This document shows, one piece after another, positions 8,601 to 46,747 of a stretch of 64,000 nt of DNA. A model generated the notes under the pieces. It had not been told where the DNA came from. It ran no database searches and saw only the letters and a list, made by a program, of their open reading frames with translations. The stretch is from Phalacrocorax aristotelis. Taxonomy: Eukaryota > Chordata > Aves > Suliformes > Phalacrocoracidae. The translations under genes were made by a program, and so were the position numbers. Location: NCBI RefSeq assembly GCF_949628215.1, contig NC_134298.1, positions 372,001 through 436,000 on the forward strand. The letters run 5' to 3'. The first letter of the stretch is position 1. Every line of letters starts with the position of its first letter.

Positions 8601-9375
8601 ACCATCTGTCCTTGTGCTATACATCCCTAATAGCCTTTTCCCTCCCAGCCATGTCCATTTCTGCCTCCCACTACGCCACCTGAGTCCATCATTGCTCCAT
8701 GGTGGACTGAAATACCTCTTCCATGCCTTGGTTCCTCCATTTCCACTTACCCCTTAGAAAATCACACTGGATTAAAACTGACTGAAATCAAGGTCTTGTT
8801 CAGCAAATAGAACTATGACAGTCAGCATCAGCTGTGCTCTACTGTGTTGATAACCACACATGCAAAACCCTTTGGATTTCTTTATCCACAATTTTCAGTA
8901 TGTATCTACAGTGTGAGCCTCCTGATGTTTTGTCATGCAGAGAAAACCAAACTCTGCAGGCATGGATTAGGAAAATAACCTTGAACATGCTCATATGTAA
9001 GAGGTTACCAGTAGGATGAAAGAGGTACTAGTTGCCTGAATTGATGGTCTGGGGCAACTGGAAGCAGAAGTGCAGAGCAGGAAGAAGTGTGAGTGTGGAA
9101 GAGTATTTCTGCTGAAACCCAGCAGTATCTGACTTGGAGAACACAGCCTATTCCAGCTTAATGAGCTAATCACATTTGAAAGTGTCTCCAGATTTGCCTG
9201 GGAAGACAGCTGTTTGCTTTCCTTGCAACGTGTGTTGTTATAAGCCTTACCTCATTCTTCAGTTGTGTATTATGTTGTGATTCGATCCCCTGAACATAAA
9301 TCACAGCCTTTCCTTAGCTTGCTCCATCACTGTTTCAGCCTCCACATTACACCACTCTATAGAGTGTTAACCTAA
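5691..9375. other. Intergenic, no gene recognised
   Basis: No convincing exon, RNA gene or young repeat is visible. From about 8040 to 8760 the sequence is pyrimidine-rich and keeps returning to words like CTGGCC, CTGACC and GTCCAT, a texture that recurs at 10190-13400. Confidence 0.45.
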
Positions 9376-13630: not shown

Positions 13631-14214
13631 TGTCCTGATTTCAGCTGGGATAGAGTTAGTTTTCTTTCTAGTAGCTGATACAGTACTGTGTTTTGTATGT
13701 GGCTTTTTTTGTGTTTAGTATGGGAATAATGTTGATAACACACCAATGTTTTAGTAGTTGCTAAGTAGATTAGTGCTTACACTAATCAAAGGTTTTTCAG
13801 CTTCTCATGTCCTGCCAGTGAGAAGATGGGAGGGGGCTCAGCCGGGACTGCTGATCCAAACTGGCCAAAGGGATATTCCATACCATATGATGAGATGCTC
13901 ATTACATAAATTGGGGGAATTTGGCTGGCAACTGTTGATCAGGAACCGACTGGGCATTGATCAGCAGGTGGTGAGCAATTGCATTGTCCATAAATAATTT
14001 TGTATATTCTTTTATCATCATTAGTACAAGTAGTAGTAGTATTACTATTACTATTAGTATTATTATGGTTCCTTTCTTTTCTGTACTATTAAACTCTCTT
14101 TATGTCAACCTACAAATTTTACTAATTTTTCCCAATTGTCTCCCCCATCCCACTGTGGGGGTAATGAGTAAACGGCTGTGTGGTGTTTAGCTGCCTGCTG
14201 GGTTAAACACAACA
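13631..14214 (+). mobile_element. 5' LTR of a decayed ERV
   Basis: It begins TGTCCTGATTTCAGCTGGG and ends GGGTTAAACACAACA, the same termini as the minus-strand LTRs at 30170 and 38870. It contains GGGATATTCCATACC, a TATTAAACTC polyadenylation-type signal and the U5 block GGGGGTAATGAGTAAACGGC. It is followed immediately by a primer-binding site, so this is a 5' LTR. An (ATT/AGT)n expansion sits inside it at 14031-14067. Confidence 0.88.
14031..14067. repeat. (AGT/ATT)n trinucleotide expansion inside an LTR
   Basis: Runs of AGT then ATT/ACT triplets interrupt the R/U5 part of the LTR. The other LTR copies in this window lack them. Confidence 0.8.
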
Positions 14215-14221
14215 GTCCTTT

Positions 14222-14239
14222 TGGCATCCAACATGGGGT
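14222..14239 (+). promoter_or_regulatory. Decayed tRNA-Lys primer-binding site
   Basis: TGGCATCCAACATGGGGT lies eight bases after the LTR end. It differs at a few positions from the intact site at 31725-31742. This identifies the element as lysine-primed and orients it plus. Confidence 0.85.
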
Positions 14240-15427
14240 ATGAAGGTTTGAGATAATGCGAGGTCTTACCAGAGCATGTTAAAGCAAATTTGTGATAAGC
14301 ATTCATTATACTCGTTTAATAATTGCTGGTCACAATGTTGATTTATTTGCTCTCAAAGTTGCATTATGTAATACTTTACTTGCAGTATATATTCCCTGTT
14401 GTGCTGCTTATCACCTCTGGGAACTGGATCAAGGTAATAATTTTGCTGCCCTGTGTAATACTAGTTTATGATATGGTAAAATTATTTGGCCATGAGACTA
14501 ATTTGGTATTTGTACACAGCATTGCCATCATCTCAGTACCTTGGGAGCCACCTCTTGGAAACTATTAATAATTACACTCTTTACCTTTTCTCCTTGGAGA
14601 ATCAGTCTATGGTGGAGATAAGGGGGGACACTTTCCCCCTACTCTTTTACCTTCTCTTTTTCCTTCAGCCTAGTTACAACAGCTTTTGTGAAATTTGAAT
14701 GTCCTTTGGATGTTCAAACCAGCATGTTCCTATTGCTGTGTCTCCTGAATGTGGTTCAGGTCTTGTTTAGGGTTAAACAATATTTAAGAATAACATCCAA
14801 AGATCTACCCCCATGGCACCACTGCAGCTACTCCAACCCCGGCGACTGGCACTGCAACTGAACCTGTGCCAGTATCAGTTGTGTCTGTGCACAAGAAGAA
14901 ATGCACAAGAAGAAATACACAAGAAAATCAGCTCATTTAGTAAGGAATGAAGACAAACCAGGGCCATAACGAGAACAGGAGGAGGAAGAGGCAGAACCTA
15001 TAAATGAGGTGGGTTCCTATACCTGATACATATTCCTGAGTGAGCTGCAAGATACATGAAAATATTTCAGTCTCCATCCAGACAAGCACACTGTCACCTG
15101 GCTGCTCTGACGCTGGAATAATGGGGCTAGTAGCCTTGAATTAGAAGGAAAGGAAACAAGCACCTGGGATTTCTAAGGAAAGGGGAGATTGACAAAGTAA
15201 TCAAAAAGGGGCTCAAGTCCTCAGCTCTGGAGGAGACTACTGTCAGGTGGGAAGGAAAGGCATCCCTTCAAGTGGATCACCATTAAGGGACGTATCCAGT
15301 ATCAGAGGGAATTAGCTATGCTCGAGGTAACTTATGATGACCTGAACAATAAGCAGTTATCCAAAGATCCAGATGAAGTCAAGTGCACACAACACAGATG
15401 GCAGAAGCTCATACGGAGCTCTCCATC
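14240..15427 (+). pseudogene. Gag remnant of the lysine-primed ERV family
   Basis: This is the decayed counterpart of 31743-33150 in the young ERV. The N-terminal hydrophobic module survives in pieces (ETINNYT and MVEIRGDTF, near 14555-14630). The Thr/Pro/Ala-rich linker is at 14815-14890. The capsid-like segment at 15090-15425 has the WLL-type helix, the block that in the young copy reads LWRRLLSGVKERYPF, and SKDPDE, all frameshifted. It stops abruptly at a minus-strand CR1. Protease, pol and a 3' LTR of this copy are not seen nearby. Confidence 0.85.
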
Positions 15428-16090
15428 AAACCATGCCCTGAAATGCAACATCTACAGGTTTTTTGAACACCTCCAGGGATAGTGACTCCCCCGCCTCTCT
15501 GGGCAGCCTATTCCAATGCCTGACCACTCTTGCAGTAAAGAAATTTTTCCTTATAACCAATATAAACCTCCCCTGATGCAGCTTGAGGCAGTTTCCTCTC
15601 GTCCTATCACTAGTAAGCTGGGGGAAGAGCAAAGAGTACACCCGTCCAAGACATGAGCTGCCAGCTTCTCTAGGAGGGTGCTGTGGGAGACAGTGTCAAA
15701 GGCTTTGCTAAAGCCCAAGCAGACAACATCCACAGCCTTTCCCTCATCCAGTAGGTGGGTCACCTGGTCATAGAAGGAGATCAGGTTGGTCAGGCAGGAC
15801 CTGCCTCTCATGAAGCCGTGCTGACTGGGCCTGATCCCCTGGTTGTCCTGCACATACCTGGTGTGCTCACTCAAGCTATATCACTCCAGAATCTTCTCTG
15901 GTACCACAGTCAGGCTGACAGGCCTGTAGCTCCCTGGATTCTCCTTGTGGCCCTTCTTGTAGTTGGGCGTCACATCGGCAAGCTTCCAGTCACCTGGGAC
16001 CTCCCCTGTTAACCAGGACTGCTGATAAATGATGGAGAGTGGCTTGGTAAACTCCTCTGCCAGCTCCCTCAGTACTCTACGATTCTCTGA
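15428..16090 (-). mobile_element. CR1 with internal deletion (minus strand)
   Basis: Read on the minus strand, this has the RT start ([39 protein letters not shown]), then jumps from the HVLDGCTLC segment straight to the 3' end ([26 protein letters not shown]). Roughly 750 bp present in the 19160-21545 copy are missing. The two copies share unusual residues (CLGF, GCTLC), so they belong to the same subfamily. It truncates the ERV remnant on its left. Confidence 0.92.
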
Positions 16091-16099
16091 TTAATATTG

Positions 16100-16190
16100 A
16101 CGTAGTCAATATATGTATATTGTCTGTATAATGTATATATATACACATATGTATATATTCTACAATATAATGTATAATTTATTACATGTT
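16100..16190. repeat. AT-rich (TATA/TGTA)n microsatellite
   Basis: Interrupted TA and TG dinucleotide runs fill the space between the CR1 and the solo LTR. Confidence 0.75.
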
Positions 16191-16192
16191 AT

Positions 16193-16709
16193 TGTGCTGG
16201 TTTTGGCTGAGAAAGAGTTAATTTTCTCCACTGTAGTGCCTGTGGTGGTCAGGGACCTTTCCAGCTTCCCGCGCTCTGCCACGTGGGCAAGAGGCTGGGA
16301 GGGGCGGAGCCATGGCAAAAACAGCTGACCCCGACTGGCCAATGGGATGTTCATTCCATACCATGTGATGCCATGACCAGTCTATTAGCTGGGGCAGTTG
16401 GTGGGGGAGGTCAGCTGGGGCTTGGGGAGGCATGGCGTCAGGTCGGCGGGTGGTGAGCGGTTGCGTCATGTGTGGTTTGATTTGGTGGTTCATTCCCCTT
16501 CCCCGCCTCCCCCCAACCCGGGGTTTTGTGCCTCTCATTGTATTCCTTTCCACTGCGTTTCTGTTGTTGTTGTTATTGTTTTATTTTAATTATTAAACTG
16601 TTTTTATCTCAACCCATGAGCGTTACCCTTCTGATTCTGTCCTCCATCCTGCTGGTGGGGGAGTGAGCGAGTGACTGTGTGGGGCTGAGTTGCTGGATAA
16701 ACAACAACA
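16193..16709 (+). mobile_element. Solo LTR, same subfamily as the young ERV
   Basis: It starts TGTGCTGGTTTTGGCTGAG and ends ATAAACAACAACA. It aligns end to end with 31219-31717, including the ACCCCGACTGGCCAATGGGA block with a CCAAT box, the GC-rich middle, ATTAAACTG and the terminal GGGGGAGTGAGCGAG. No internal ERV sequence adjoins either end. I find no clear target duplication, so the ends may have decayed. Confidence 0.9.
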
Positions 16710-28590: not shown

Positions 28591-28699
28591 ACAGATCTAA
28601 TTACACAGATTTTCAAGTCACAGTGTGCGCATACAAGATAACTGCTGCTACATCTGCTTCTCCTGCAAAGTCTATAGCAGCTTCTGTATGATTTTCAAC

Positions 28700-29638
28700 A
28701 TGCCCTCAGGTAACTTGACGCAAGTGGTTGAATTCATTCTGGTTGGTTTTCCAGGTAAACAGGAAATGAGGCTTCTGCTCTTTTTTATGTTCTTCCTGGC
28801 TTATGTGCTGACAGTGATAGAAAATGCAATGATTGTTGTGCTTGTTTGGACAAATCTCCAGCTTCACAAGCCAATGTATTTTTTCCTGGGCAATCTTTCT
28901 TTTCTGGAGATCTGGTACGTCTCTGTCACAGTGCCCAAAGTGCTTGTGAGCTTGGTGACGAAGAGACAAGGCATCTCCTTCACAGGCTGCATGGCTCAGC
29001 TATTCTTCTTCCTGGCACTGGCCTGCAGTGAGTGCACTCTCTTGGCTGTCATGGCCTACGATCGCTATGTGGCCATCTGCAACCCATTGCATTACTCAGT
29101 CATCATGGATCACACTCTTTGCACCCACCTGGCCATTGGCTCCTGGATGAGTGGCTTCCTGATTTCCACAGGGAAGGTTTACTTCATTTCACATCAGACC
29201 TACTGTGGGCCTAATATCATCAACCACTTCTTTTGTGATGTCTCCCCCTTACTGAAGCTAGCCTGCACCAACATGTCAGTAGCTGAGCTTATGGATTTCT
29301 TACTGGCCCTGCTCATCCTTCTTGTACCACTCATTGTGATTATGGTCTCCTATGTGTGGATCATCTTCGCTGTCTTGGGCATCCCCTCAGCCCAGGGGCG
29401 TCACAAGGCCTTCTCTACCTGTGCCTCTCACCTCTTAGTGCTCACATTGTTCTACACAGCCTCCCTGTTTATCTATGCCAGGCCTCAGCCTATTGATTCC
29501 TTCAGCTCCTACAAACTGATTTCTGTGGTCTACACCGTACTGACACCCCTCATCAACCCGGTCATTTACTGCCTAAGGAACCAGGAATTCAAAATTGCTT
29601 TTAGGAAAACAATATACTGGAGCAACATCTCATCATAG
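28700..29638 (+). CDS. Olfactory receptor, family 6-like, intact
   Basis: A seven-transmembrane odorant receptor of 312 residues, a normal OR length, on one exon. It would couple to the olfactory G protein in the cilia of sensory neurons. Visible features are an N-glycosylation site (Asn5), TM1 Asn42 (ENAMIV, where GN is usual), KPMYFFLGN (57-65), Cys97 for the conserved disulfide, MAYDRYVAIC (118-127), the Cys169/179/189 extracellular set, KAFSTCASH (236-244) and NPVIYCLRN (286-294). The phrases FLEIWYVSVTVPK and INHFFCDVSPLL are typical of OR6 members. I start at ATG 28700 because MPSGNLTQVV is a normal OR beginning; the frame is open back to 28625. It is the only intact OR here. The exact orthologue is not determined. 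Confidence 0.95.
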   Translation: MPSGNLTQVVEFILVGFPGKQEMRLLLFFMFFLAYVLTVIENAMIVVLVWTNLQLHKPMYFFLGNLSFLEIWYVSVTVPKVLVSLVTKRQGISFTGCMAQLFFFLALACSECTLLAVMAYDRYVAICNPLHYSVIMDHTLCTHLAIGSWMSGFLISTGKVYFISHQTYCGPNIINHFFCDVSPLLKLACTNMSVAELMDFLLALLILLVPLIVIMVSYVWIIFAVLGIPSAQGRHKAFSTCASHLLVLTLFYTASLFIYARPQPIDSFSSYKLISVVYTVLTPLINPVIYCLRNQEFKIAFRKTIYWSNISS

Positions 29639-30059: not shown

Positions 30060-30169
30060 GAATAGAATGACAGAGTTAGAAGGTATTCTAAGAGGTCTGT
30101 AGGCCAACCTCCTGCTCAAAACAAGCTCAGTTACATCAGGAACTTGTTCAGGTGAGTTTGCATACCTCC
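30060..30169 (-). mobile_element. Old CR1 3' end, left half of a CR1 split by nested ERVs
   Basis: On the plus strand this reads as antisense CR1: AGAGGTCTGTAGGCCAACC, then TCCTGCTCAAAACAAGCTC, then CAGGTGAGTTTGCATACCTC. The same element resumes at 39445 with CCTCCAAAGATG, the next part of the CR1 consensus, 9.3 kb away. The ERV nest lies exactly between. Confidence 0.8.
30165..30169. repeat. Target site duplication CCTCC (left copy)
   Basis: CCTCC directly precedes the left minus-strand LTR, and the same five bases follow the right LTR at 39445-39449. It marks the insertion of the outer minus-strand ERV. Confidence 0.88.
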
Positions 30170-30745
30170 TATCATGGTTTAGCCCCAGTCAGCAACCAAG
30201 CACCACGCAGCCGCTCACTCGCTCCCCCCTGGTGGGATGGGGGAGAGGATCGGAAGAGTAAAAGTGAGGCAACTCGTGGGTTGAGATAAAGACAGTTTAA
30301 TAGTAAAAGCAAAAGCTGCGCACGCAAGCAAAGCAAAACAAGGAATTCATTCACTCCTTTCCACGGGCAGGCAGGCGCTCGGCCATCCCCAGGAGAGCAG
30401 GGCTCCATCACGCGTAACGGTTACTTGGGAAGACAAACGCCATCGCTCCAAACGTCCCCCCTTCCTCCTCCTTCCCCAGCTTTATATCCTGAGCATGGCG
30501 TCGTATGGTACGGGATACCCCGTGGGTCACTTTGGGTCAGCTGTCCCGGCTGTGTCCCCTCCCAGCTTCTTGTGCACCTGGCATAGCACGGGGAGCTGAA
30601 AAAGGCCTTGATCAGTGTACACACTACTTAGCCACAACTAAAGCATCTCCACATTATCACCGCTGTTTCCAGCAAAAATCCAAAACACACCCCCATACTA
30701 GCTACTAAGAAGAAATTTAACTCTACCCCACCTGAAACCAGGACA
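30170..30745 (-). mobile_element. 3' LTR of the outer, non-autonomous ERV
   Basis: It aligns over its full length with 38870-39444, with about 37 differences in 575 bp by eye (about 6%). On the minus strand it runs from TGTCCTGGTTTCAGGTGGGG to the GCTAAACCATGATA end. Internal landmarks on that strand are a TATA box (TATAAA, plus 30481-30486) and an ATTAAA polyadenylation signal (plus 30296-30301). The polypurine tract abuts it at 30746, which makes it the 3' LTR. Confidence 0.95.
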
Positions 30746-30763
30746 GTATCCACCCCTTATTCC
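30746..30763 (-). promoter_or_regulatory. Polypurine tract of the outer ERV
   Basis: On the minus strand GGAATAAGGGGTGGATAC directly precedes the 3' LTR. It is almost the same as 37224-37241 of the inner ERV. Confidence 0.9.
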
Positions 30764-31017
30764 ATACCATTTACATCATGCTCAGGTTCCACACTATCCA
30801 ATACAACCACACTAACCTCCATCCCCCTTCCCATCCTTTGATAAAATACACAGATATCATTTAGTCCACGGCTTTGGGCTCCATCTCTTCTTGTGGTCAC
30901 GCAGGACAGGAGAGGTGGTGCATTGCGTGGAGTTACTGGGCACCAAAGCCAGCTCAGGTCGGGTCACTGCTGCGCTTGCACTGCTTCTTGAAAGGCTTGT
31001 CCTCCGTTGGTTCAGGT

Positions 31018-31187
31018 GGTTCCTGCTGTAGTAATTCCTACAACATGCAACTCAAATCACAGGTTGCAACAATTTAAAGGTATATCCACCAAAATCGCCA
31101 CCCCTGGCCCCTTTGGGCCAGGTTATAGGTTTTAACATTGCAGTGAACTCCTCCCCTTGCTCCCAGCCTGGCTAGCAACCAGGGGTT
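31018..31187. repeat. First of two direct repeats of about 170 bp in the outer ERV
   Basis: The unit contains ACTCAAATCACAGGTT, CAACAATTTAAAGGTAT, CACCCCTGGCCC and CAGTGAACTCCTCCCCTTGC. The same landmarks recur in the second unit, which starts at 31188, is split by the inner ERV, and continues from 37734 to about 37855. Confidence 0.85.
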
Positions 31188-31213
31188 TCTGCTATAGTAA
31201 TTTCCACAACAAG

Positions 31214-31218
31214 GAACT
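31214..31218. repeat. Target site duplication GAACT (left copy)
   Basis: GAACT precedes the inner ERV and recurs at 37734-37738. The uninterrupted first repeat unit reads GCAACTCAAATC at the matching place, which confirms the empty site. Confidence 0.92.
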
Positions 31219-31717
31219 TGTGCTGGTTTTGGCTGAGAAGGGGTTAATTCTCCTCACTGTGGGGGTCAGCTACCTTTCCAGCTTCCCGCGCTCTGCCGCG
31301 TGGCGTGGCAGGGGGGGCTGGGAGGGGCAGGGCCATGGTGGGGGCGGCTGACCCCGACTGGCCAATGGCAGGTTCATTCCATACCATGTGACACCATGAC
31401 CAGTATATTGAGGGGGGGCAGTGGCAGCGCGCAGGCGGCGCGGCGTCGGGTCGGCGGGGGGTGAGCGGCCGCGGCGCGTGCGGTTTGTTCCGGCGGTTCG
31501 CTCCCCCTCTCCCCTCCCTTCCCCCCTCCCCCGGGGCTTTGCGCCTCTCGTTGTTCTCCTTTACATTGCATTTTCTACTGTTGTTTCTTTTAATTTTCAT
31601 TATTAAACTGTTCTTATCCCAACCCACGAGCGTTACCCTTCTGATTCTCTCCCCCATCTACCGGTGGGGGAGTGAGCGAGCGGCTGTGTGGGGCTGAGCT
31701 GCCGCTAAACCACGACA
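31219..31717 (+). mobile_element. 5' LTR of the inner, young ERV
   Basis: A 499 bp LTR, TGTGCTGG...CACGACA. Compared with the 3' LTR I count five substitutions and one 7 bp indel (near 31456-31463), about 1% divergence. It holds a CCAAT box (31362-31366), a weak TATATT element (31404-31409), a long GC-rich middle and an ATTAAA polyadenylation signal (31602-31607). It acts as promoter and 5' end of the proviral transcript. Confidence 0.97.
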
Positions 31718-31724
31718 GTCCTTT

Positions 31725-31742
31725 TGGCGCCCAACGTGGGGC
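31725..31742 (+). promoter_or_regulatory. Primer-binding site, tRNA-Lys(1,2) type
   Basis: TGGCGCCCAACGTGGGGC lies 7 bp after the LTR. It is the sequence complementary to the 3' end of tRNA-Lys1,2 that several betaretroviruses use. Reverse transcription would start here. Confidence 0.93.
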
Positions 31743-31782
31743 ACGAGGGTTGGAGATAACAACAGCTGCTGGTCCCAGCACC

Positions 31783-33651
31783 ATGTTGTCCTTTTTGCAG
31801 TTGGTGTTAAAAATCGGTGTTGGTTGTTTGAGTCTGCTGTGTTCTGCTGTGATTAGTAATGTTTTGCCTACGAGATTTGTTATACAAACACTCGTTTTCA
31901 GCTTTATCTGGTATTTGGGGTTTTTGCTGAAACCGTTACTGTACTTCGGATACCACCTTGTTGAGGCAATTAGCAATTATACCTCCTCCTCTGAGAGATT
32001 TTATATGGAGGAAATACAGAATAATACCTTTGCAACTTTGTTCTATGATGTCTGTGCCTTTGTTACAACAACGTTTTTGTATCTTGAACATCCTTGGGTG
32101 GTTAAGGTGCAGTCATTGTTAGTTTTTGGGCATGTTGTTTTGGTTTTGACTAAGCAACTTAAGAATATCACCCAGAAATCTGCCCCGAGGCTTGATAGTT
32201 ACGAGTGGCAGGGCATGTGGGATAGCATGGGCAAATACCTAGGGCAGTGGGCACCCCCAGTGTTTTGGAGTTTCACCCCCGAGCAAGTGCAGAATCCTAA
32301 AAAACTAGTAGAATATTTAGAGAAAGTATGTTGTTACGCTGGGAACTCCAGAGAGACACAGATAACTGCAACGTGCTGGGGTCTGGCCCATGCATACCGA
32401 GCCCTGCTCAACAGTATTCAGTGCCCCCAGGGGGAAGAGAATGTCTCTGGATTGAAATGCAAAGTGACTGGCACTGTAGACAATCCAGCCCTGACAACAG
32501 GCACTGCAGCCACTCAAACCCCCACAACAAGTACCGGAGCTAGCTCAGAAAATAAACCCGTACCAGTATCAGTTGCCCCCATACATAAGACGAAATATTG
32601 GAAGCGGACATCAACTCGTTTAGAACGGGATGATGAAGAACCAGGGCCATCGCGGGGAGAGGAGGGAGAAGTAATAAATGAAATAGAGACCACCCGATCC
32701 CTGTCCTTAAGCGAGTTGCGAGATATGCGAAAAGATTATAGCCGTCGTTCAGGTGAGCACATTGCCACCTGGCTGCTCCGATGCTGGGATAATGGGGCCA
32801 GTAGCCTGGAACTAGAGGGAAAAGAAGCCAAACAATTGGGATCCCTTTCTGGGGAAGGGGGCGTTGACAAAGCAATTGGAAAAAAACCACAAGCCCTCAG
32901 CCTCTGGAGGCGACTCCTGTCTGGAGTGAAGGAAAGGTATCCCTTTAAAGAAGATGTTACATATCGCCCAGGAAAATGGACAACTATGGAGAAAGGCATC
33001 CAGTATCTCAGGGAATTAGCTGTGTTTGAGGTGATTTATGGTGACCTGGATGATCAACGGTCATCCAAAGATCCAGATGAAGCCGAGTGCACACGACCCA
33101 TGTGGCGGAAGTTTGTACGGAGCGCACCATCTTCACATGCAAACTCATTGGCAGTGATGTCCTGGAAAGATGACGAGACACCAACGGTGGCAGAGGTGAT
33201 AGATAGACTCCGGGATTATGACACAAATATCTCTTCCTCGCTTGTCTCTGCTGTGGAGAAACTATCCCAAGAGGTCCAGCAACTCAAAGAAGATCTGTCC
33301 TACTCCCCACCTCGACAGAGCAGTGTCTCAGCTGTTAGGAATAAGCGTCCTTTGGCTCAAAGAAGGGGATACACACCACGGGCCACCCTATGGTTCTACC
33401 TGCGTGACCACGGAGAGGACATGATGAGGTGGGATGGCAAGCCTACTTCGACCCTACAGGCACGAGTACATGAACTGCAAGGAAGAACAGTCACTCAGGG
33501 AGGCTCTTCCAGGAAAGCTGCTGCTCCAGTTTCCAGCGAGCAAGTCCCCAGACAGAGGAGTAGAAGCGCAGATTTTATTTCTAAGTGTAATAGAGGGACT
33601 CCTGATTCACATTTACAGGAAGTGAGTTGTGACTGCCATGATCAGGACTAG
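31783..33651 (+). CDS. gag: ERV gag-like polyprotein with hydrophobic N-terminus
   Basis: A 622-residue intact frame of the young ERV. I start at ATG 31783 (A at -3), the first ATG after the primer-binding site; the frame opens earlier but inside the LTR. Residues 1-125 hold three or four strongly hydrophobic segments and an N-glycosylation motif (NYT), unlike an ordinary matrix domain. A Thr/Pro/Ala-rich linker and a charged acidic stretch follow. The capsid-like part, at about residues 305-475, contains TWLLRCWDNGASSLELEG and LWRRLLSGVKERYPF, with a coiled-coil-like segment after it. The C-terminus is basic and has no CCHC zinc knuckle. The frame ends at TAG 33649-33651 and pol continues in the same frame. 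An older relative at 14240-15427 keeps the hydrophobic module. Confidence 0.88.
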   Translation: MLSFLQLVLKIGVGCLSLLCSAVISNVLPTRFVIQTLVFSFIWYLGFLLKPLLYFGYHLVEAISNYTSSSERFYMEEIQNNTFATLFYDVCAFVTTTFLYLEHPWVVKVQSLLVFGHVVLVLTKQLKNITQKSAPRLDSYEWQGMWDSMGKYLGQWAPPVFWSFTPEQVQNPKKLVEYLEKVCCYAGNSRETQITATCWGLAHAYRALLNSIQCPQGEENVSGLKCKVTGTVDNPALTTGTAATQTPTTSTGASSENKPVPVSVAPIHKTKYWKRTSTRLERDDEEPGPSRGEEGEVINEIETTRSLSLSELRDMRKDYSRRSGEHIATWLLRCWDNGASSLELEGKEAKQLGSLSGEGGVDKAIGKKPQALSLWRRLLSGVKERYPFKEDVTYRPGKWTTMEKGIQYLRELAVFEVIYGDLDDQRSSKDPDEAECTRPMWRKFVRSAPSSHANSLAVMSWKDDETPTVAEVIDRLRDYDTNISSSLVSAVEKLSQEVQQLKEDLSYSPPRQSSVSAVRNKRPLAQRRGYTPRATLWFYLRDHGEDMMRWDGKPTSTLQARVHELQGRTVTQGGSSRKAAAPVSSEQVPRQRSRSADFISKCNRGTPDSHLQEVSCDCHDQD

Positions 33652-33679
33652 AGGGGCCCTGCCTCCAGCCGGGTGGAGG
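33649..33679 (+). promoter_or_regulatory. Putative stop-codon readthrough signal between gag and pol
   Basis: TAG (33649-33651) is the only stop between two large frames in the same reading frame. Ten bases later lies a perfect 6 bp stem, CCTCCA (33662-33667) and TGGAGG (33674-33679), with a six-base GC-rich loop. Gammaretroviruses express pol by readthrough of an in-frame UAG upstream of an RNA structure, so this looks like the same solution. It has not been shown here. Confidence 0.6.
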
Positions 33680-36600
33680 AAAGGGATAACCGGGCTTACT
33701 GGACTGTGTGGATCCGATGGCCTGGCACGTCCGACCCACAGGAGTATAAAGCTTTAGTGGACACCGGCGCACAGTGCACCTTAATGCCATCAAACTATAT
33801 AGGGGCAGAACCCATCAGCATTGCTGGAGTGACAGGGGGATCTCAAGAGCTAACTGTATTGGAGGCCGAAGTGAGCCTAACTGGCAATGAGTGGCAGAAG
33901 CACCCCATTGTGACTGGCCCAGAGGCTCCGTGCATCCTTGGTATAGACTACCTCAGGAGAGGGTATTTCAAGGACCCAAAAGGTTACAAGTGGGCTTTTG
34001 GTGTAGCTGCCTTGGAGACGGAGGAAACTGAACAGCTGTCTACCTTGCCCGGTCTCTCAAAGGACCCTTCTGTGGTGGGGTTGCTGAAGGTCAAAGAACA
34101 ACAGGTGCCAATCGCCACCACAACAGTGCACCGGCGGCAATATCGCACCAACAGAGACTCTCTGATCCCCATCCATAAACTCATTCACCAACTGAGGAGC
34201 CAAGGAGTCATCAGTAAGACCCACTCACCCTTTAACAGTCCCATATGGCCAGTCCGGAAGTCTAATGGAGAGTGGAGACTAACAGTAGACTATCGTGGCC
34301 TGAATGAAGTCACTCCACCGTTGAGTGCTGCTGTGCCAGACATGCTAGAACTTCAATACGAACTGGAGTCAAAGGCGGCCAAGTGGTATGCCACAATTGA
34401 TATTGCTAATGCATTCTTCTCAATCCCTCTGGCAGCAGAGTGCAGGCCACAGTTTGCTTTCACATGGAGGGGCGTCCAGTACACCTGGAATCGACTGCCC
34501 CAGGGGTGGAAACACAGTCCTACCATTTGCCATGGACTGATTCAGACTGTACTGGAACAGGGAGAAGCTCCAGAACACCTTCAATACATTGATGACATCA
34601 TTGTGTGGGGCAGCACAGCAGAAGAAGTTTTTGAGAAAGGTGAGAAAATAGTCCAAATCCTTCTGAAAGCTGGTTTTGCCATAAAACAAAGTAAGGTGAA
34701 GGGACCTGCACGAGAAATCCAGTTCTTAGGAATTAAATGGCAAGACGGTCGTCGTCAGATTCCAATGGATGTGATCAACAAAATAGCAGCCATGTCTCCA
34801 CCAACTAGCAAAAAGGAAACACAAGCTTTCTTGGGCGTTGTGGGTTTTTGGAGAATGCATATTCCAAATTACAGTCTGATCGTGAGCCCTCTCTATCAAG
34901 TGACCCGGAAAAAGAATGATTTCAAATGGGGCCCTGAGCAACGACAAGCCTTTGAACAGATTAAACGAGAAATAGTCCATGCAGTAGCTCTTGGGCCAGT
35001 CCGGGCAGGACAAGATGTAAAAAATGTGCTCTACACTGCAGCCGGGGAGAATGGCCCTACCTGGAGTCTCTGGCAGAAAGCACCTGGGGAGACCCGGGGT
35101 CGACCCCTAGGGTTTTGGAGTCGGGGATACAGAGGGTCTGAAGCCCGCTATACTCCAACTGAAAAAGAGATATTGGCAGCATATGAAGGGGTTCGAGCTG
35201 CTTCAGAAGTGGTTGGTACTGAGGCACAGTTGCTCCTGGCACCCCGACTGCCAGTGCTGGGCTGGATGTTCAAAGGAAACATCCCCTCTACACACCATGC
35301 AACTGATGCTACGTGGAGTAAATGGGTTGCACTGATCACCCAGCGGGCTCGAGTAGGAAACCCCAGTCGCCCAGGAATCTTGGAAGTGATTATGGACTGG
35401 CCAGAAGGCAAAGATTTTGGATTATCACCAGAGGAGGAGGTGACACGTGCTGAAGAAGCCCCACTGTATAACAAACTGCCAGAAGATGAGAAGCAATATG
35501 CCCTGTTCACTGATGGGTCCCGTCGCCTTGTGGGAAAGCACCGGAGATGGAAGGCTGCTGTATGGAGTCCTACACGACAAGTAGCAGAAACTGCTGAAGG
35601 AGAAGGTGAATCGAGCCAGTTTGCAGAGGTAAAGGCCATCCAGCTGGCCTTAGACATCGCTGAACGGGAAAAGTGGCCAGTGCTCTATCTCTATACTGAC
35701 TCCTGGATGGTGGCAAATGCCTTGTGGGGCTGGCTGCAGCAATGGAAGCAAAGCAACTGGCAGCGCAGAGGCAAACCCATCTGGGCTGCCACATTGTGGC
35801 AAGATATTGCTGCCCGGGTAGAGAAACTGGTTGTAAAGGTACGGCATGTGGATGCTCACGTCCCCAAGAGTCGGGCCACTGAAGAACATCGAAACAACCA
35901 GCAGGTAGATCGGGCTGCCAAGATTGAAGTGGCTGAGGTGGATCTGGACTGGCAGCATAAGGGTGAACTATTTCTAGCTCGGTGGGCCCATGACACCTCA
36001 GGCCATCAAGGGAGAGATGCAACATACAGGTGGGCTCGTGATCGAGGGGTGGACTTGACCATGGATATTATTGCACAGGTTATCCACGAATGTGACACAT
36101 GCGCTGCAATCAAGCAAGCGAAGCGGGTAAAGCCTCTGTGGTATGGGGGACGATGGCTGAAATATAAATATGGGGAGGCCTGGCAAATTGACTATATCAC
36201 ACTCCCACAGACCCGCCAAGGCAAGCGCCATGTGCTTACAATGGTAGAAACAACGACTGGCTGGCTGGAAACATATCCTGTCCCCCACGCCACTGCCCGG
36301 AACACTCTCCTGGGTCTGGAAAAACAAGTCCTGTGGCGACATGGCACCCCAGAGAGGATTGAGTCAGACAACGGGACTCATTTCCGAAATAGCCTCATAG
36401 ACACCTGGGCCAAAGAGCACGGCATTGAGTGGGTGTATCACATCCCCTATCACGCACCAGCCTCTGGGAAAATTGAAAGGTACAATGGACTGTTAAAAAC
36501 CACACTGAGAGCAATGGGGGGTGGGACATTCAAGCACTGGGATACACATTTAGCAAAAGCCACGTGGTTAGTCAACACGAGGGGATCTGCCAACCGAGCT

Positions 36601-36837
36601 GGCCCTGCCCAGTCAGAAATCCTACATACTGTGGAAGGGGATAGAGTCCCTGTAGTGCACACAAAAAGTATGCTGGGCAAAACAGTCTGGGTTCTTCCTG
36701 CCTCTGGCAAAGGCAAACCCATTCGTGGGATTGTTTTTGCTCGAGGACCTGGGTGCACTTGGTGGGTGATGCGGGAGGATGGAGAAATCCGATGTGTGCC
36801 TCAAGGGGATTTGATTTTGGGTGAAAACAGTCAATGA
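33652..36837 (+). CDS. pol: ERV pol: protease, RT, RNase H, integrase
   Basis: An intact 1061-codon frame directly after the gag stop, without its own obvious ATG, so it is probably made as a gag-pol fusion. Counting from 33673, the order is as follows. Aspartic protease: VDTGAQCTLMP with Asp30. RT: active site YIDD at 305-308. RNase H: Asp614, Glu652, Asp676 and Asp746. Integrase: zinc finger His773, His778, Cys807, Cys810, and a catalytic core Asp840, Asp899, Glu935 with the canonical 35-residue D-E spacing. A C-terminal basic/aromatic domain with CTWWVMREDGE follows. I recognise no dUTPase. All catalytic residues are present and there is no break, so the enzyme may be functional. The closest general type is class III (ERVL-like). 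Confidence 0.95.
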   Translation, partial: RGPASSRVEERDNRAYWTVWIRWPGTSDPQEYKALVDTGAQCTLMPSNYIGAEPISIAGVTGGSQELTVLEAEVSLTGNEWQKHPIVTGPEAPCILGIDYLRRGYFKDPKGYKWAFGVAALETEETEQLSTLPGLSKDPSVVGLLKVKEQQVPIATTTVHRRQYRTNRDSLIPIHKLIHQLRSQGVISKTHSPFNSPIWPVRKSNGEWRLTVDYRGLNEVTPPLSAAVPDMLELQYELESKAAKWYATIDIANAFFSIPLAAECRPQFAFTWRGVQYTWNRLPQGWKHSPTICHGLIQTVLEQGEAPEHLQYIDDIIVWGSTAEEVFEKGEKIVQILLKAGFAIKQSKVKGPAREIQFLGIKWQDGRRQIPMDVINKIAAMSPPTSKKETQAFLGVVGFWRMHIPNYSLIVSPLYQVTRKKNDFKWGPEQRQAFEQIKREIVHAVALGPVRAGQDVKNVLYTAAGENGPTWSLWQKAPGETRGRPLGFWSRGYRGSEARYTPTEKEILAAYEGVRAASEVVGTEAQLLLAPRLPVLGWMFKGNIPSTHHATDATWSKWVALITQRARVGNPSRPGILEVIMDWPEGKDFGLSPEEEVTRAEEAPLYNKLPEDEKQYALFTDGSRRLVGKHRRWKAAVWSPTRQVAETAEGEGESSQFAEVKAIQLALDIAEREKWPVLYLYTDSWMVANALWGWLQQWKQSNWQRRGKPIWAATLWQDIAARVEKLVVKVRHVDAHVPKSRATEEHRNNQQVDRAAKIEVAEVDLDWQHKGELFLARWAHDTSGHQGRDATYRWARDRGVDLTMDIIAQVIHECDTCAAIKQAKRVKPLWYGGRWLKYKYGEAWQIDYITLPQTRQGKRHVLTMVETTTGWLETYPVPHATARNTLLGLEKQVLWRHGTPERIESDNGTHFRNSLIDTWAKEHGIEWVYHIPYHAPASGKIERYNGLLKTTLRAMGGGTFKHWDTHLAKATWLVNTRGSANRAGPAQSEILHTVEGDRVPVVHTKSMLGKTVWVLPASGKGKPIRGIVFARGPGCTWWVMREDGEIRCVPQGDLILGENSQ

Positions 36838-37223
36838 ACTGAATGGCACAATGTGAACTGCTATATAATATTGTGTGTCACCTCTGTGTTGTATCAATGA
36901 TATCAGAGTACGAGCCTCCCAACCCATGGAAGATCAACTATGAAACAAGCCGTGCAGCAGTGATGGAACGATGACTGACTCGGTATGCAGCAACCCAACG
37001 CCACACACCATCTCTCCCACCCGGAAAGACTGATACAACAGATGGAGCCCAGAGTCATGGACTGCGTGAACTCAATGGACATTTTAATGGACATTTTACA
37101 GGGAAGATCCATGAACTAAGGGAATGATGTCTGTGTATTATGTTAAAGGATGGGAAGGGGAGGGGTGGTGGTTGGTACGGTTGTATTGCATCATATGGGA
37201 CCTGGGCATGGTGTAAGTGGTAT
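36838..37223 (+). other. 3' untranslated region of the inner ERV (no env)
   Basis: Only about 390 bp separate the pol stop from the polypurine tract, too short for an envelope gene, and no env-like frame is present. The last 100 bp are shared with the outer non-autonomous ERV. Confidence 0.85.
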
Positions 37224-37241
37224 GGAATAAGGGGTGGAGAA
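37224..37241 (+). promoter_or_regulatory. Polypurine tract of the inner ERV
   Basis: GGAATAAGGGGTGGAGAA directly precedes the 3' LTR; it primes plus-strand DNA synthesis. Confidence 0.92.
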
Positions 37242-37733
37242 TGTGCTGGTTCTGGCTGAGAAGGGGTTAATTCTCCTCACTGTGGGGGTCAGCTACCTTT
37301 CCAGCTTCCCGCGCTCTGCCGCGTGGCGTGGCAGGGGGGGCTGGGAGGGGCAGGGCCATGGTGGGGGCGGCTGACCCCGACTGGCCAATGGCAGGTTCAT
37401 TCCATACCACGTGACACCGTGACCAGTATATTGAGGGGGGGCAGTGGCAGCGCGCAGGCGGCGCGGCGTCGGGTCGGCGAGCGGCTGCGGCGCGTGCGGT
37501 TTGTTCCGGCGGTTCGTTCCCCCTCTCCCCTCCCTTCCCCCCTCCCCCGGGGCTTTGCGCCTCTCGTTGTTCTCCTTTACATTGCATTTTCTACTGTTGT
37601 TTCTTTTAATTTTCATTATTAAACTGTTCTTATCCCAACCCACGAGCGTTACCCTTCTGATTCTCTCCCCCATCTACCGGTGGGGGAGTGAGCGAGCGGC
37701 TGTGTGGGGCTGAGCTGCCGCTAAACCACGACA
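37242..37733 (+). mobile_element. 3' LTR of the inner, young ERV
   Basis: A 492 bp LTR nearly identical to 31219-31717. It starts TGTGCTGGTTCTGG and ends AAACCACGACA, with its ATTAAA polyadenylation signal at 37618-37623. The target duplication GAACT follows. Confidence 0.97.
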
Positions 37734-37738
37734 GAACT
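37734..37738. repeat. Target site duplication GAACT (right copy)
   Basis: It matches 31214-31218 exactly. The sequence then continues the interrupted host repeat (CAAATCCCGGGTT). Confidence 0.92.
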
Positions 37739-38843
37739 CAAATCCCGGGTTAGAACAATTTAAAGGTATTTCCATTACAGTCTCCACCCCTGGTCCATTT
37801 GGATCAGACCATCAGGTTTGACGTTGCAATGAACTCCTCCCCTTGCCCCTGCTCTGGTTCGGACTTACCCACAGACTGTTGTCCTTTAGGGTTGTACCTG
37901 CTCCAAGTGGATCCTTACCCGGGAGCCACAGTCTCTCCAGGGGCACACCTGCTGCAGCATGGACTTATCCAGAGCCACAGTCGCTTTGAGGTGTGCCTGT
38001 TGCAGCGTGGCCTTCTGCATGGGCCTCAATGCTTTCAGAGCTATACTTGCTCCAGCATGGCCTTGGCCACAGCTGCAGTCCCTCCAGAAGTAAACTTGCT
38101 CCAACACGGCCTTGCCCATGGCTGTAGTCCCTCCAAAGCCTGCTCCAACATGGCTTTTCCCATGGCTTCAGTCCCTCCAGAACTAAGCCTGCTCTGTTGT
38201 GGGCTTATCCATGGCCACGCACTTTGAGGTGCTCCAGCATGACCTCATGCACAGCCACTGATGCTTCAAGGTGTACCTGCTGCAGCACGGACTCATCTAC
38301 AGCCACAGACACTTCGAGGTGTACCATCTCCAAGATGGATATATCCCTGGGCCACAATTGCCTCAGAGGTATACCTGCTGTGGCACAGACATAACCAAGG
38401 CCACAGATGCTTCGCGATATACCCGCTCTGGCACGGGCTTATACACAGCCACAGATGCTTTGGGGTGCCCTGCTCCCACATGGACCCATCCACAGCTCAC
38501 AGTCCCTCTGACTCGAGTTCGCACTGGAGTTCCAGCCTGTCCAGTGCAGCAGCACAGAAACAGCAGCAGGGCCCTGGCCATCTGCCAGCCCAGGCGCATC
38601 GCCATGGCTGTTATCAGAGTGTTCCCAGGCCCGGCAGGGGAAGGGGATAAGCAGTACAGCAGTACAGCGAGCAGTGAAAGCAAAAAGCACCACTAATGAG
38701 CACTAGATTTTAAGGCATGCAGTAAGTCAGGCGAGCCCCCAGCAAGCACAGAAGCCTGCCATACAATAACTGAACAGCAATAACCGCTATAAATTCCATC
38801 TAGCACATTCAAATAAAATCTGTCGTTATCTCAAACCTTTTGT
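37739..38843 (-). mobile_element. Internal region of the outer ERV, 5' part with minisatellite
   Basis: It continues the outer element after the inner insertion. First comes the rest of the second 170 bp repeat (to about 37855), then a degenerate minisatellite (37930-38490), then about 350 bp of leader. Together with 30746-31218 only about 1.6 kb of internal DNA exists, with no gag, protease or pol. Frames across the minisatellite are repeat translations, not genes. Confidence 0.88.
37930..38490. repeat. Minisatellite of about 45-65 bp units inside the outer ERV
   Basis: Roughly ten degenerate units share landmarks on the plus strand such as CTGCTGCAGCATGGACTTAT, CACAGCCACAG and CTTTGAGGTG, with unit lengths varying by internal loss. 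The landmark order is kept, but the units differ by 20-30% by eye. Confidence 0.85.
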
Positions 38844-38861
38844 GCCCCATGCTGGGCGCCA
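38844..38861 (-). promoter_or_regulatory. tRNA-Lys primer-binding site of the outer ERV
   Basis: On the minus strand TGGCGCCCAGCATGGGGC lies eight bases inside the LTR. It differs at two positions from the site of the inner ERV. It proves that 38870-39444 is the 5' LTR and that the element runs leftward. Confidence 0.93.
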
Positions 38862-38869
38862 AAATGGAC

Positions 38870-39444
38870 TGTCGTGGTTTAGCCCCATTCAGCAACCAAG
38901 CACCACGCAGCCGCTCGCTCGCTCCCCCCTGGTGGGATGGGGGAGAGGATCGGAAGAGTAAAAGTGAGGCAACTCGTGGGTTGAGATAAAGACAGTTTAA
39001 CAGTAAAAGCAAAAGCTGCGCACGCAAGCAAAGCAAACCAAGGAATTCATTCACCCCTTCCGACGGGCAGGCTGGTGCTCAGCCGTCTCCAGGAGTGCAG
39101 GGCTCCATCACGCGTAACGGTTACTTGGGAAGACAAACGCATCACTCCAAACGTCCCCCCTTCCTCCTCCTTCCCCAGCTTTATATCCTGAGCATGGTGT
39201 CGTATGGTACGGGATACCCCGTGGGTCACTTTGGGTCAGCTGTCCCGGCTGTGTCCCCTCCCAGCTTCTCGTGCACCCGGCAGAGCACGGGGAGCTGAAA
39301 AAGGCCTTGACCAGTGTAAGCGCTACTCAGCAACAACTAAAACACCTCTGCATTATCACCGCTGTTTCCAGCAAAAATCCAAAACACAGCCCCATACTAG
39401 CTACTACGAAGAAATTTAACTCTATCCCAGCTGAAATCGGGATA
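38870..39444 (-). mobile_element. 5' LTR of the outer, non-autonomous ERV
   Basis: A 575 bp partner of 30170-30745. On the minus strand it has a clear TATA box (GGATATAAAGC, plus 39180-39185 for TTTATA). The LTR borders are marked by the primer-binding site on one side and the target duplication CCTCC (39445-39449) on the other. Confidence 0.95.
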
Positions 39445-39504
39445 CCTCCAAAGATGTATATCTCACCACTTAGCTAGGTCCCTTATTACAATGTCTGATC
39501 ACTC
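39445..39504 (-). mobile_element. Old CR1, right half of the CR1 split by nested ERVs
   Basis: CCTCCAAAGATG continues the antisense CR1 3' text that broke off at 30169. The first five bases are the right copy of the ERV target duplication. Only about 60 bp remain before another CR1 3' end begins. Confidence 0.65.
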
Positions 39505-43184: not shown

Positions 43185-43787
43185 CCTTGTGTTGTGGTTT
43201 AACCCCAGTACACAACTAAGCCCCAAACAGCTGCTTCCTCGCTCTTCTATTAGCAGGATAGGGGAAAGAAACAGAAGGGTAAAAGTGAGAAAACTCATGG
43301 GTTGAGATAAAAACATTTTAATAAGTAAAGCAAAAACTGCATGCACAAGCAAAGAAAAAGGAGTTCATTCACCACTTTGCATCAGCAGACAGATGTTTAG
43401 GCCTTTCCAAGAAAGCAGAGTTTCATTAGACCTAACAGTTACCTGGAAAGATAAACACCATAACCCTGAATGTCCCCCACTTCTTCCTTCTTTCCCCTAG
43501 CTTTTATTGCTGAGCAAGGTGTCTTATGGTGTGGAATATCCCTTTGGTCAGCTGGGGTCATCTGTCCCAGCTGTGTCCCCTGTCAACTTATTATGCACCT
43601 CGGGCCAACTCACTGCAGTGGCAGTGTGAGAAGCAGAAAAGGCCTTGACACTGTACAAGAACTGCTCAGCAACACCTAAAACTTTGGTGTATTATCAACA
43701 CTGTTTTGGTCACAAATCTGAAATATAGCACTATATGAGCTATATGAAGAAAATTAACCCTATCCCAACCAAAACCAATACACCTTG
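43185..43787 (-). mobile_element. Solo LTR with target duplication CCTTG
   Basis: The LTR spans 43190-43782 on the minus strand, from TGTATTGGTTTTGGTTGGG to the AAACCACAACA end. It is of the same subfamily as the outer ERV LTRs but more diverged. CCTTG at 43185-43189 is repeated at 43783-43787, a perfect 5 bp duplication, so this is an LTR-LTR recombination product. Confidence 0.93.
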
Positions 43788-46178: not shown

Positions 46179-46747
46179 TGTCCTGGTTTCAGGTGGGGTA
46201 GAGTTAAATTTCTTCTTAGTAGCTGGTATGGGGCTGTGTTTTGGATTTTTGCTGGAAACAGCGGTGATAATGCAGAGGTGTTTTAGTTGTTGCTGAGTAG
46301 CGCTTACACTGGTCAAGGCCTTTTTCAGCTCCCCGTGCTCTGCCAGGTGCACAAGAAGCTGGGAGGGGACACAGCCGGGACAGCTGACCCAAAGTGACCC
46401 ACGGGGTATCCCGTACCATACGACGCCATGCTCAGGATATAAAGCTGGGGAAGGAGGAGGAAGGGGGGACGTTTGGAGTGATGCGTTTGTCTTCCCAAGT
46501 AACCGTTACGCGTGATGGAGCCCTGCTCTCCTGGGGATGGCTGAGCGCCTGCCTGCCCGTGGGAAGGAGTGAATGAATTCCTTGTTTTGCTTTGCTTGCA
46601 TGCACAGCTTTTGCTTTTACTATTAAACTGTCTTTATCTCAACCCACGAGTTGCCTCACTTTTACTCTTCCGATCCTCTCCCCCATCCCACCAGGGGGGA
46701 ATGAGCGAGCGGCTGCATGGTGCTTGGTTGCTGAATGGGTCTAAACC
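46179..46747 (+). mobile_element. Solo LTR inserted in CR1, 3' end lost
   Basis: It starts TGTCCTGGTTTCAGGTGGGG and has GGATATAAAGC and ATTAAACTG like the outer ERV LTRs, but in plus orientation. It ends GTCTAAACC and lacks the expected final ACGACA. The following CR1 also lacks about 25 bp compared with 9580-9615. The shared AACC at the join suggests a microhomology deletion. Confidence 0.92.

What the first reader, a model, noticed from the sequence alone, without database searches (positions are those of the whole stretch)
30746..38869. Non-autonomous ERV that shares only cis-signals with the young autonomous ERV
The outer element has LTRs, a tRNA-Lys primer site, leader, 3' untranslated end and polypurine tract but no gag or pol. 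About 100 bp before its 3' LTR and the first bases after its primer site match the inner autonomous element. The rest is replaced by 170 bp direct repeats and a minisatellite. This looks like a parasite packaged and copied by the helper family, now carrying its own helper inside it.
Basis: partly seen in the sequence, partly recalled or inferred. Interest (0 to 1): 0.78.

Follow-up and report, generated by a model that had tools for sequence, protein, structure and literature searches.

The report
Gene-less bird retrovirus-like parasite family
A short retrovirus-like element with no genes of its own has spread through a bird genome, most likely by borrowing the proteins of related, gene-bearing elements; one copy was later interrupted by such a relative, which looks like an ordinary nested insertion.

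Summary
The outer element is real: minus strand, about 2.76 kb without the insert, two ~575-bp LTRs, Lys-type PBS, PPT, target duplication CCTCC. It belongs to a coding-free family: 13 complete copies among 36 places read, LTR pairs 0.7-7.0% apart, exact 5-bp duplications in 6 of 11 copies with both flanks read, 83 exact 3' junctions genome-wide. The inner element is a gag-pol ERVL inserted antisense (duplication GAACT).

Corrections: (1) the LTRs of the two elements are themselves related; (2) the outer element keeps a 51-bp scrap of pol, so it descends from a coding ERVL; (3) its closest pol-bearing relatives by U3 (79-88%) and 3' UTR (83-90%) are other ERVLs of this genome, not the inner family, so 'carrying its own helper' is probably coincidence.

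The named refutation was not found: of 38 pol-end copies newly read, 27 have other ERVL LTRs best, one a nested antisense outer LTR, 10 could not be classed.

Mobilisation in trans by ERVL proteins is the best reading but is inferred. Parallels: ETn/MusD, mysTR, MaLR. A second LTR element has captured the outer element's 3' half. New member of a known kind.

The parts
30165..30169 (.). target duplication CCTCC, left side of outer element
   Evidence: sequence
30170..30745 (-). outer element 3' LTR
   Evidence: 93.7% to the other LTR over 572 bp
30746..30861 (-). polypurine tract and end of 3' UTR, shared with the inner, x and y ERVL groups
30862..31048 (-). rest of outer 3' UTR; weaker match (70% over 76 columns) to the inner 3' UTR
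31049..31213 (-). 170-bp repeat, unit 1
31214..31218 (.). target duplication GAACT of the inner element, left
31219..37733 (+). inner gag-pol ERVL provirus, inserted antisense in the outer element; LTRs 31219-31717 and 37242-37733 (1.0% apart)
31725..31742 (+). inner primer binding site (Lys type by recall)
31783..33651 (+). inner reading frame in the gag position (first in-frame ATG to stop); no Pfam match
33673..36837 (+). inner pol reading frame: RT, RNase H, integrase; same frame as gag, one stop between
36838..37241 (+). inner 3' UTR and polypurine tract
37734..37738 (.). target duplication GAACT of the inner element, right
37735..37849 (-). 170-bp repeat, unit 2 (79% to unit 1 over 115 bp)
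37900..38504 (-). minisatellite-like region; TRF reports ~48-bp units at 38048-38194 and 38230-38332
38505..38555 (-). 51-bp pol scrap, 78% to inner pol 34325-34375
38556..38843 (-). outer leader; first bases after the PBS shared with the inner and y groups, rest of unknown origin
38844..38861 (-). outer primer binding site (Lys type by recall), 2 mismatches to the inner one
38870..39444 (-). outer element 5' LTR
39445..39449 (.). target duplication CCTCC, right side of outer element
   Evidence: sequence
46179..46747 (+). solo LTR of the outer family (95.8% to the outer 5' LTR)

Best explanation
The outer element is one copy of a non-autonomous ERVL family. An ancestral gag-pol ERVL lost nearly all of gag and pol; what remains is the LTRs, the PBS with a short piece of leader, a 51-bp scrap of pol, and the last part of the 3' UTR with the polypurine tract, while a minisatellite and a 170-bp repeat of unknown source fill the middle. 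Its RNA is made from its own LTR promoter, is taken into particles made by related ERVLs, is primed by the same tRNA, copied by their reverse transcriptase and inserted by their integrase with a 5-bp duplication. Shown: structure, family, 5-bp duplications, descent from a pol-bearing ERVL, and presence in the same genome of young pol-bearing ERVLs with matching ends. Inferred: transcription, packaging and copying in trans. The inner ERVL later inserted into this copy, antisense, as an ordinary nested insertion.
For: Of 36 outer-bearing places read (window, L001-L020, L024-L026, L066-L077) 13 have both LTRs: window, L004, L005, L012, L015, L017, L019, L024, L025, L067, L071, L072, L073; L024 and L073 run off the fetched end within the 3' LTR. 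No gag or pol match between their LTRs at the cut-offs used (1e-8, 1e-6); longest sense ATG frame 55-101 codons in the 11 uninterrupted internals measured. LTR pairs 0.7-7.0% apart. Exact 5-bp duplications in 6 of 11 copies with both flanks read (window, L015, L017, L067, L071, L072). 83 exact 3' junctions genome-wide, control 0. Pol scrap: best pol alignment starts at the same pol base in 12 of 12 copies. Pol-bearing relatives with homologous LTRs: L020-L023. Young relatives present: inner LTR pair 1.0%; y group with presumed LTR pairs 96% and 99% alike, pol end present in L081, PPT-LTR junction the same as the outer one up to TGTC. Inner RT is closest to Pr125Pol chains in the PDB (foamy virus by recall), fitting ERVL.
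Against: No expression, packaging or copying was measured. Three complete copies, all on C35, lack matching flanks (L004, L005, L019); rearrangement may explain this. In L071 and L073 the pol-scrap score (27, 26) is itself within the shuffle range (maximum 29-32), and the 12 copies are relatives, not independent trials. The shared end of the 3' UTR is not more conserved among pol-bearing groups than the rest of the 3' UTR in 6 of 7 comparisons and shows no supported RNA fold, so its retention alone does not prove a cis function. Antisense ATG frames reach 55-252 codons in the same 11 internals; I take them for chance frames of the repeat region, but did not test them. Ten of 38 newly read pol-end copies could not be classed by LTR.
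Confidence: 0.85

Rival explanations
1. The outer copies are independent deletion derivatives of a coding family with the same LTRs.
For: A 51-bp pol scrap and the 3' UTR show descent from a pol-bearing ERVL. Older copies L025 and L026 keep a stretch of ERVL 3' UTR that the others lack. Ten of 38 newly read pol-end copies could not be classed; one of these (L054) ends at the start of an LTR-like stretch too short to tell.
Against: The complete copies share one internal design; internals are 90.6-93.7% alike to L071 in 9 comparisons and 84.6% in the tenth, L025. Of the 38 pol-end copies newly read, 27 had an x-type LTR best (their best match of 100 bp or more to an outer LTR is 82.6%), 1 (L035) an antisense outer LTR nested in an x-type one, 10 no LTR match. 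A pol-end plus TGTCCTGGTTT pattern gave 13 matches at 3 places, none outer-type where read.
Confidence: 0.07
2. The inner ERVL family is the specific helper of the outer family.
For: Same PBS, end of 3' UTR at 79-84%, U5 81-86% (as close as the x group, 77-86%, and the y group, 80-85%), 5-bp duplication, and the family is young and abundant (1210 3' junctions within 1 mismatch).
Against: U3 barely aligns (159-163 columns with 198-206 gap columns), and the PPT-LTR junction differs (GGAGAA/TGTG against GGATAC/TGTC), while x and y share the outer junction up to TGTC; x is closest in U3 and 3' UTR.
Confidence: 0.2
3. Copies multiplied mainly as DNA (segmental duplication or satellite growth), not by retrotransposition.
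For: C35 holds 45 of 83 exact 3' junctions in 31.3 Mb of 1279 Mb (my count of the list); L001/L002 and L010/L011 have the same layout and look like duplicates; ten PBS-leader hits with one score lie on five small contigs.
Against: Six copies with six different exact 5-bp duplications lie on contigs C1 (two), C4, C6, C8 and C23, which are independent insertions.
Confidence: 0.05

Closest known systems
ETn / MusD of the house mouse (ERVK)
   Same: Coding-free LTR element with stretches of a coding relative, said to be moved in trans by it; seen as a passage in PMC10089650
   Different: ERVK, not ERVL; that passage cites trans-complementation work, whereas nothing was tested here
Non-autonomous mysTR-related families of the deer mouse (PMC10089650, passages)
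   Same: Main homology to the coding families lies between pol and the 3' LTR, internal sequence replaced; the authors suggest recombination and a possible role of that stretch in mobilisation
   Different: ERVK of a rodent; here ERVL of a bird, with a pol scrap and a minisatellite
MaLR (THE1, MST, MLT) of mammals
   Same: Non-autonomous relatives of ERVL, pol- and env-less (PMC11359688, passages)
   Different: MaLRs share gag sequence with ERVL; no gag was found in the outer family
TguERVL2 of songbirds (PMC6523648, section 3.4 read)
   Same: Like the inner element: ERVL of about 6.4 kb, two long frames in one reading frame, recently active
   Different: It is the coding kind, and a disrupted env-like domain was predicted in its gag frame; sequences were not compared here, so the inner element is not filed as TguERVL2

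Membership tests
Non-autonomous LTR retroelement | two LTRs, PBS and PPT in place | tested here: met
Non-autonomous LTR retroelement | target-site duplications at independent copies | tested here: met
   exact 5 bp in 6 of 11 copies with both flanks read; L012 4 of 5, L025 ambiguous, L004, L005, L019 none
Non-autonomous LTR retroelement | no coding capacity across the family | tested here: met
   13 complete copies without gag/pol match beyond the 51-bp scrap; short sense frames in 11
Non-autonomous LTR retroelement | mobilisation in trans by a coding relative | not testable with these tools
   needs RNA and particle data
ERVL lineage (outer element) | LTRs and 3' UTR homologous to pol-bearing ERVL elements | tested here: met
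   x copies L020-L023: U3 79-88%, 3' UTR 83-90% against three outer copies; pol scrap
ERVL (inner element) | RT nearest to spumaviruses, no env, 5-bp duplication | tested here: met
   best PDB hits are chains 7o0h_A, 7o0g_A, 7o24_A named Pr125Pol (foamy virus by recall); no plus-strand frame of 120 aa or more between pol and 3' LTR; GAACT
ERVL (inner element) | leucine tRNA primer, from which the L is taken (recall) | tested here: not met
   PBS is of Lys type by recall; this lowers only the literal label
MaLR | gag-derived internal sequence | tested here: not met
   no gag match at E<=0.1 in the 13 internal pieces searched; no gag alignment above shuffles in L071
TguERVL2 (inner element) | sequence identity with the published consensus | not tested
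   consensus not held; only size and layout compared with PMC6523648

The most novel reading that the evidence does not exclude
Birds have their own counterpart of MaLR and mysTR: a coding-free ERVL lineage that has gone further than MaLR by losing gag too, keeps only the ends of an ERVL, and has been promiscuous enough to be copied together with an unrelated LTR element, which captured its 3' half. Independent arrival of rodent ERVK and bird ERVL parasites at the same layout (LTRs, PBS, and the stretch between pol and 3' LTR) would then point to a general minimum set of signals for riding on ERV particles.
Probability: 0.3. Interest if true: 0.6.

Novelty: new member of a known kind. Interest (0 to 1): 0.42.

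Why it matters
It adds a bird ERVL case to the known pairs of coding-free and coding ERVs, with an internal fossil that shows descent. Because possible helper groups of several ages sit in the same genome, it makes testable which cis parts are needed to be copied in trans. It is also a warning for annotation: the inner element inside the outer one looks like a functional pair but is more likely a chance nesting.

Tried and rejected
Inner element as progenitor: not favoured, x-type ERVLs are closer in U3 and 3' UTR; in U5 and first leader bases there is no difference. RNA structure in the shared 3' UTR: RNAalifold gave -1.6 kcal/mol and no covarying pair on 29 sequences. Special constraint on the last 135 bp of the 3' UTR: not seen in 6 of 7 group comparisons. 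Source of the minisatellite and 170-bp repeat: not found; in L071 two minisatellite stretches match 16-18 bp of pol in L022 with scores 30 and 29 against a maximum of 27 in 25 shuffles each, and the same place gave 15-19 bp matches at E 0.006-0.021; I treat this as unresolved, not as a source. L035 looked like a pol-bearing copy with an outer LTR, but that LTR is antisense inside an x-type LTR. The gag probe L020:4417-5130 did not complete and was dropped. The positive control pattern for one search did not complete, so the sensitivity is uncalibrated. A search with the chimera's LTR did not complete. Literature: searches (20 of 128 listed; 19 of 19; 2 of 2; 12 of 13; 15 of 370; 12 of 185; 10 of 33; 6 of 6) showed, in titles and starts of abstracts, no paper on a non-autonomous ERVL of birds; the library holds open-licence papers only, and Repbase/Dfam could not be searched. 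Passages of PMC5006616 and PMC4992247 on chicken repeats did not describe one either.
Full report
What is there. The stretch 30170-39444 is a nested pair. The outer element lies on the minus strand: 5' LTR 38870-39444, primer site 38861-38844, leader, a 51-bp pol scrap, a minisatellite-like region, a 170-bp repeat in two units, 3' UTR, polypurine tract, 3' LTR 30170-30745. It is flanked by CCTCC on both sides. Between the two repeat units sits the inner element, 31219-37733, plus strand, flanked by GAACT. Without the insert and its duplication the outer element spans about 2.76 kb (one search gives 2756, counted one base wider at the left end).

The inner element. It has two long frames in one reading frame separated by one stop; the second holds RT, RNase H and integrase, the first has no Pfam match. 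Among solved structures its RT is closest to three chains named Pr125Pol, which I take to be foamy virus. There is no plus-strand frame of 120 aa or more between pol and the 3' LTR. With the 5-bp duplication this fits ERVL. The 120 best of 547 protein matches carry bird names where a name is given, for example Grus japonensis, Mycteria americana (up to 96% identity), Theristicus caerulescens (95%). Its LTRs differ by 1.0%, and its 3' junction occurs 1210 times within one mismatch in the genome. It resembles TguERVL2 in size and layout (PMC6523648, abstract, passages and section 3.4), but sequences were not compared.

The outer element is a family. A 401-bp probe from its 3' UTR matched at 92-95% in the 39 other places scored, out of 1470 first-look candidates. 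I read 20 of those 39, 6 places from the list (three of them outer-type, L024-L026) and 12 of the 39 others scored with a PBS-leader probe. Not every probe hit is an outer element: 5 of the 20 (L008, L009, L013, L018, L020) carry only the outer 3' part inside another element. Of 36 outer-bearing places read, window included, 13 have both LTRs: window, L004, L005, L012, L015, L017, L019, L024, L025, L067, L071, L072, L073; the rest are cut, rearranged, chimeric or run off the fetched stretch. L017 holds a nested solo LTR. None of the 13 has a gag or pol match between its LTRs at the cut-offs used. LTR pairs differ by 6.3, 5.4, 7.0, 2.1, 1.7, 2.8, 5.3, 1.2, 6.6, 3.3, 0.7, 2.3 and 2.9% in that order. 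Exact 5-bp duplications are seen in 6 of the 11 with both flanks read (window, L015, L017, L067, L071, L072); L012 matches at 4 of 5, L025 is ambiguous, and L004, L005 and L019, all on C35, have none. The 3' junction occurs 83 times exactly and 228 times within one mismatch, with none for the reversed control. The larger figure overcounts: 7 of the 17 one-mismatch places listed read TGTCATGG, the y-type start, and some exact ones are the chimeras above. By my count 45 of the 83 exact places are on C35, a 31-Mb contig that I take to be the W chromosome, in line with the W as an ERV refuge (PMC8310711, passages).

Descent. Twelve of twelve outer copies align best to the inner pol from the same pol base (nucleotide 653 of the frame), over 50-52 bp in ten and 28-31 bp in two; the window copy matches over 51 bp at 78%. 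None of 300 dinucleotide shuffles reached the observed score for the window, L024 and L025, the three tested. The copies are relatives, so the twelve are not independent, but the match is well beyond chance. So the family comes from a pol-bearing ERVL. No other clear gag or pol trace, and no source of the minisatellite or 170-bp repeat, was found; a 16-18 bp match of the minisatellite to pol of L022 slightly exceeds the shuffles and is left open. L025 and L026 retain part of the ERVL 3' UTR that is missing in the others.

Which relative is closest. In four pol-bearing copies of another ERVL group, called x here (L020-L023), U3 is 79-88% and the end of the 3' UTR 83-90% identical to three outer copies; for the inner element the 3' UTR figure is 79-84% and its U3 mostly does not align. 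A third, young group, called y (L078-L081; pol end seen in L081), shares the outer PPT-LTR junction up to TGTC and has presumed LTR pairs 96% and 99% alike. U5 and the first leader bases do not tell the groups apart. In a tree of 37 LTRs the inner LTRs form one side of a branch at 100/100; the outer LTRs lie together with one unassigned window LTR (43189-43780) beyond a branch at 100/100. So the inner family is not the nearest relative.

I probed with the end of pol from L021: 40 scored of 1885 candidates. The 40 are L021, L023 and 38 others, and I read the 3' ends of those 38. By summed BLAST score against eight reference LTRs 27 are x-type, some narrowly (L030: 114 against 104 bits); their best match of 100 bp or more to the best-scoring outer reference is 82.6%. 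One, L035, has an outer LTR that proved to be an antisense insertion in an x-type LTR, and ten had no LTR match. L021-L023 also class as x, but L021 and L022 are themselves references. Of the ten, three run into an inner-type LTR start at the edge of the stretch, one (L054) into an LTR-like start too short to class, one has a PPT followed by other sequence, one only a poor PPT-like string, and four no PPT. A pattern joining the pol end to the LTR start TGTCCTGGTTT gave 13 matches at three places, eleven of them one tandem array on C36. The LTRs read there (one array unit, L083; L082; L037) score best with x and are at most 80% identical to an outer LTR over 100 bp or more. The positive control of this pattern did not complete, so a rare coding copy with outer LTRs cannot be excluded.

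Mechanism. The likely cycle is transcription from the outer LTR, packaging by ERVL Gag, priming by tRNA-Lys (PBS type by recall), and copying and insertion by ERVL enzymes. Shared ends, equal duplication length and overlapping ages support it; none of the steps was observed. The shared 3' UTR shows neither special constraint among pol-bearing groups nor a supported fold. The deer mouse mysTR case has the same layout, and its authors left the role of that stretch open (PMC10089650, passages).

A side find. In L008 a complete second coding-free LTR element (LTRs 321 and 317 bp, 96.9% alike; primer site of tRNA-Trp type by recall; longest sense open stretch 126 codons) contains the 3' part of the outer element up to about position 415 of its LTR; L009, L013, L018 and L020 share its 5' part and a shorter piece of the outer LTR. 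This suggests that outer RNA was once copied together with RNA of an unrelated element, though fusion at the DNA level is not excluded.

Judgement. The kind is known in mammals; I found no report for bird ERVL in the searches named, which cover open-licence papers only and were seen as titles and abstract starts.

Noticed in passing
L008 reverse strand 6819-9302; also L009, L013, L018, L020: A second coding-free LTR element with a Trp-type primer site (recall) contains the outer element's 3' part (repeat, 3' UTR, part of the LTR).
   Followed up: partly
G000 C36:52209576-52284482: Eleven pol-end matches of an x-type ERVL at a period of about 7445 bp: a provirus-derived tandem array.
   Followed up: partly
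G000 C35:11393937, 11400431, 11406925: Three y-group leaders spaced 6494 bp: a short tandem provirus array on the ERV-dense contig.
   Followed up: no
G000 C116, C123, C25, C143, C274: Ten PBS-leader hits of the outer family with the same score and extent (1-221 at 95%) on small contigs, suggesting an amplified copy; L075 covers one of them.
   Followed up: partly
window 13633-16709: Remnant of an old ERVL: LTR pieces 70-77% alike to outer and inner LTRs and a gag scrap at 14927-15427.
   Followed up: no
window 43189-43780 (-): Unassigned ERVL-type LTR, 71% to the outer LTR, lying with the outer LTRs in the tree.
   Followed up: partly
window 28625-29638 (+): Open olfactory receptor frame of 337 aa near the nested elements.
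   Followed up: no
L048, L049, L050: Copies found with an x-type pol-end probe run into an inner-type LTR start, which suggests recombination between ERVL groups.
   Followed up: no
internal regions of 11 outer copies, e.g. L019: Antisense ATG frames of 55 to 252 codons in the minisatellite-bearing internals; not tested for conservation.
   Followed up: no
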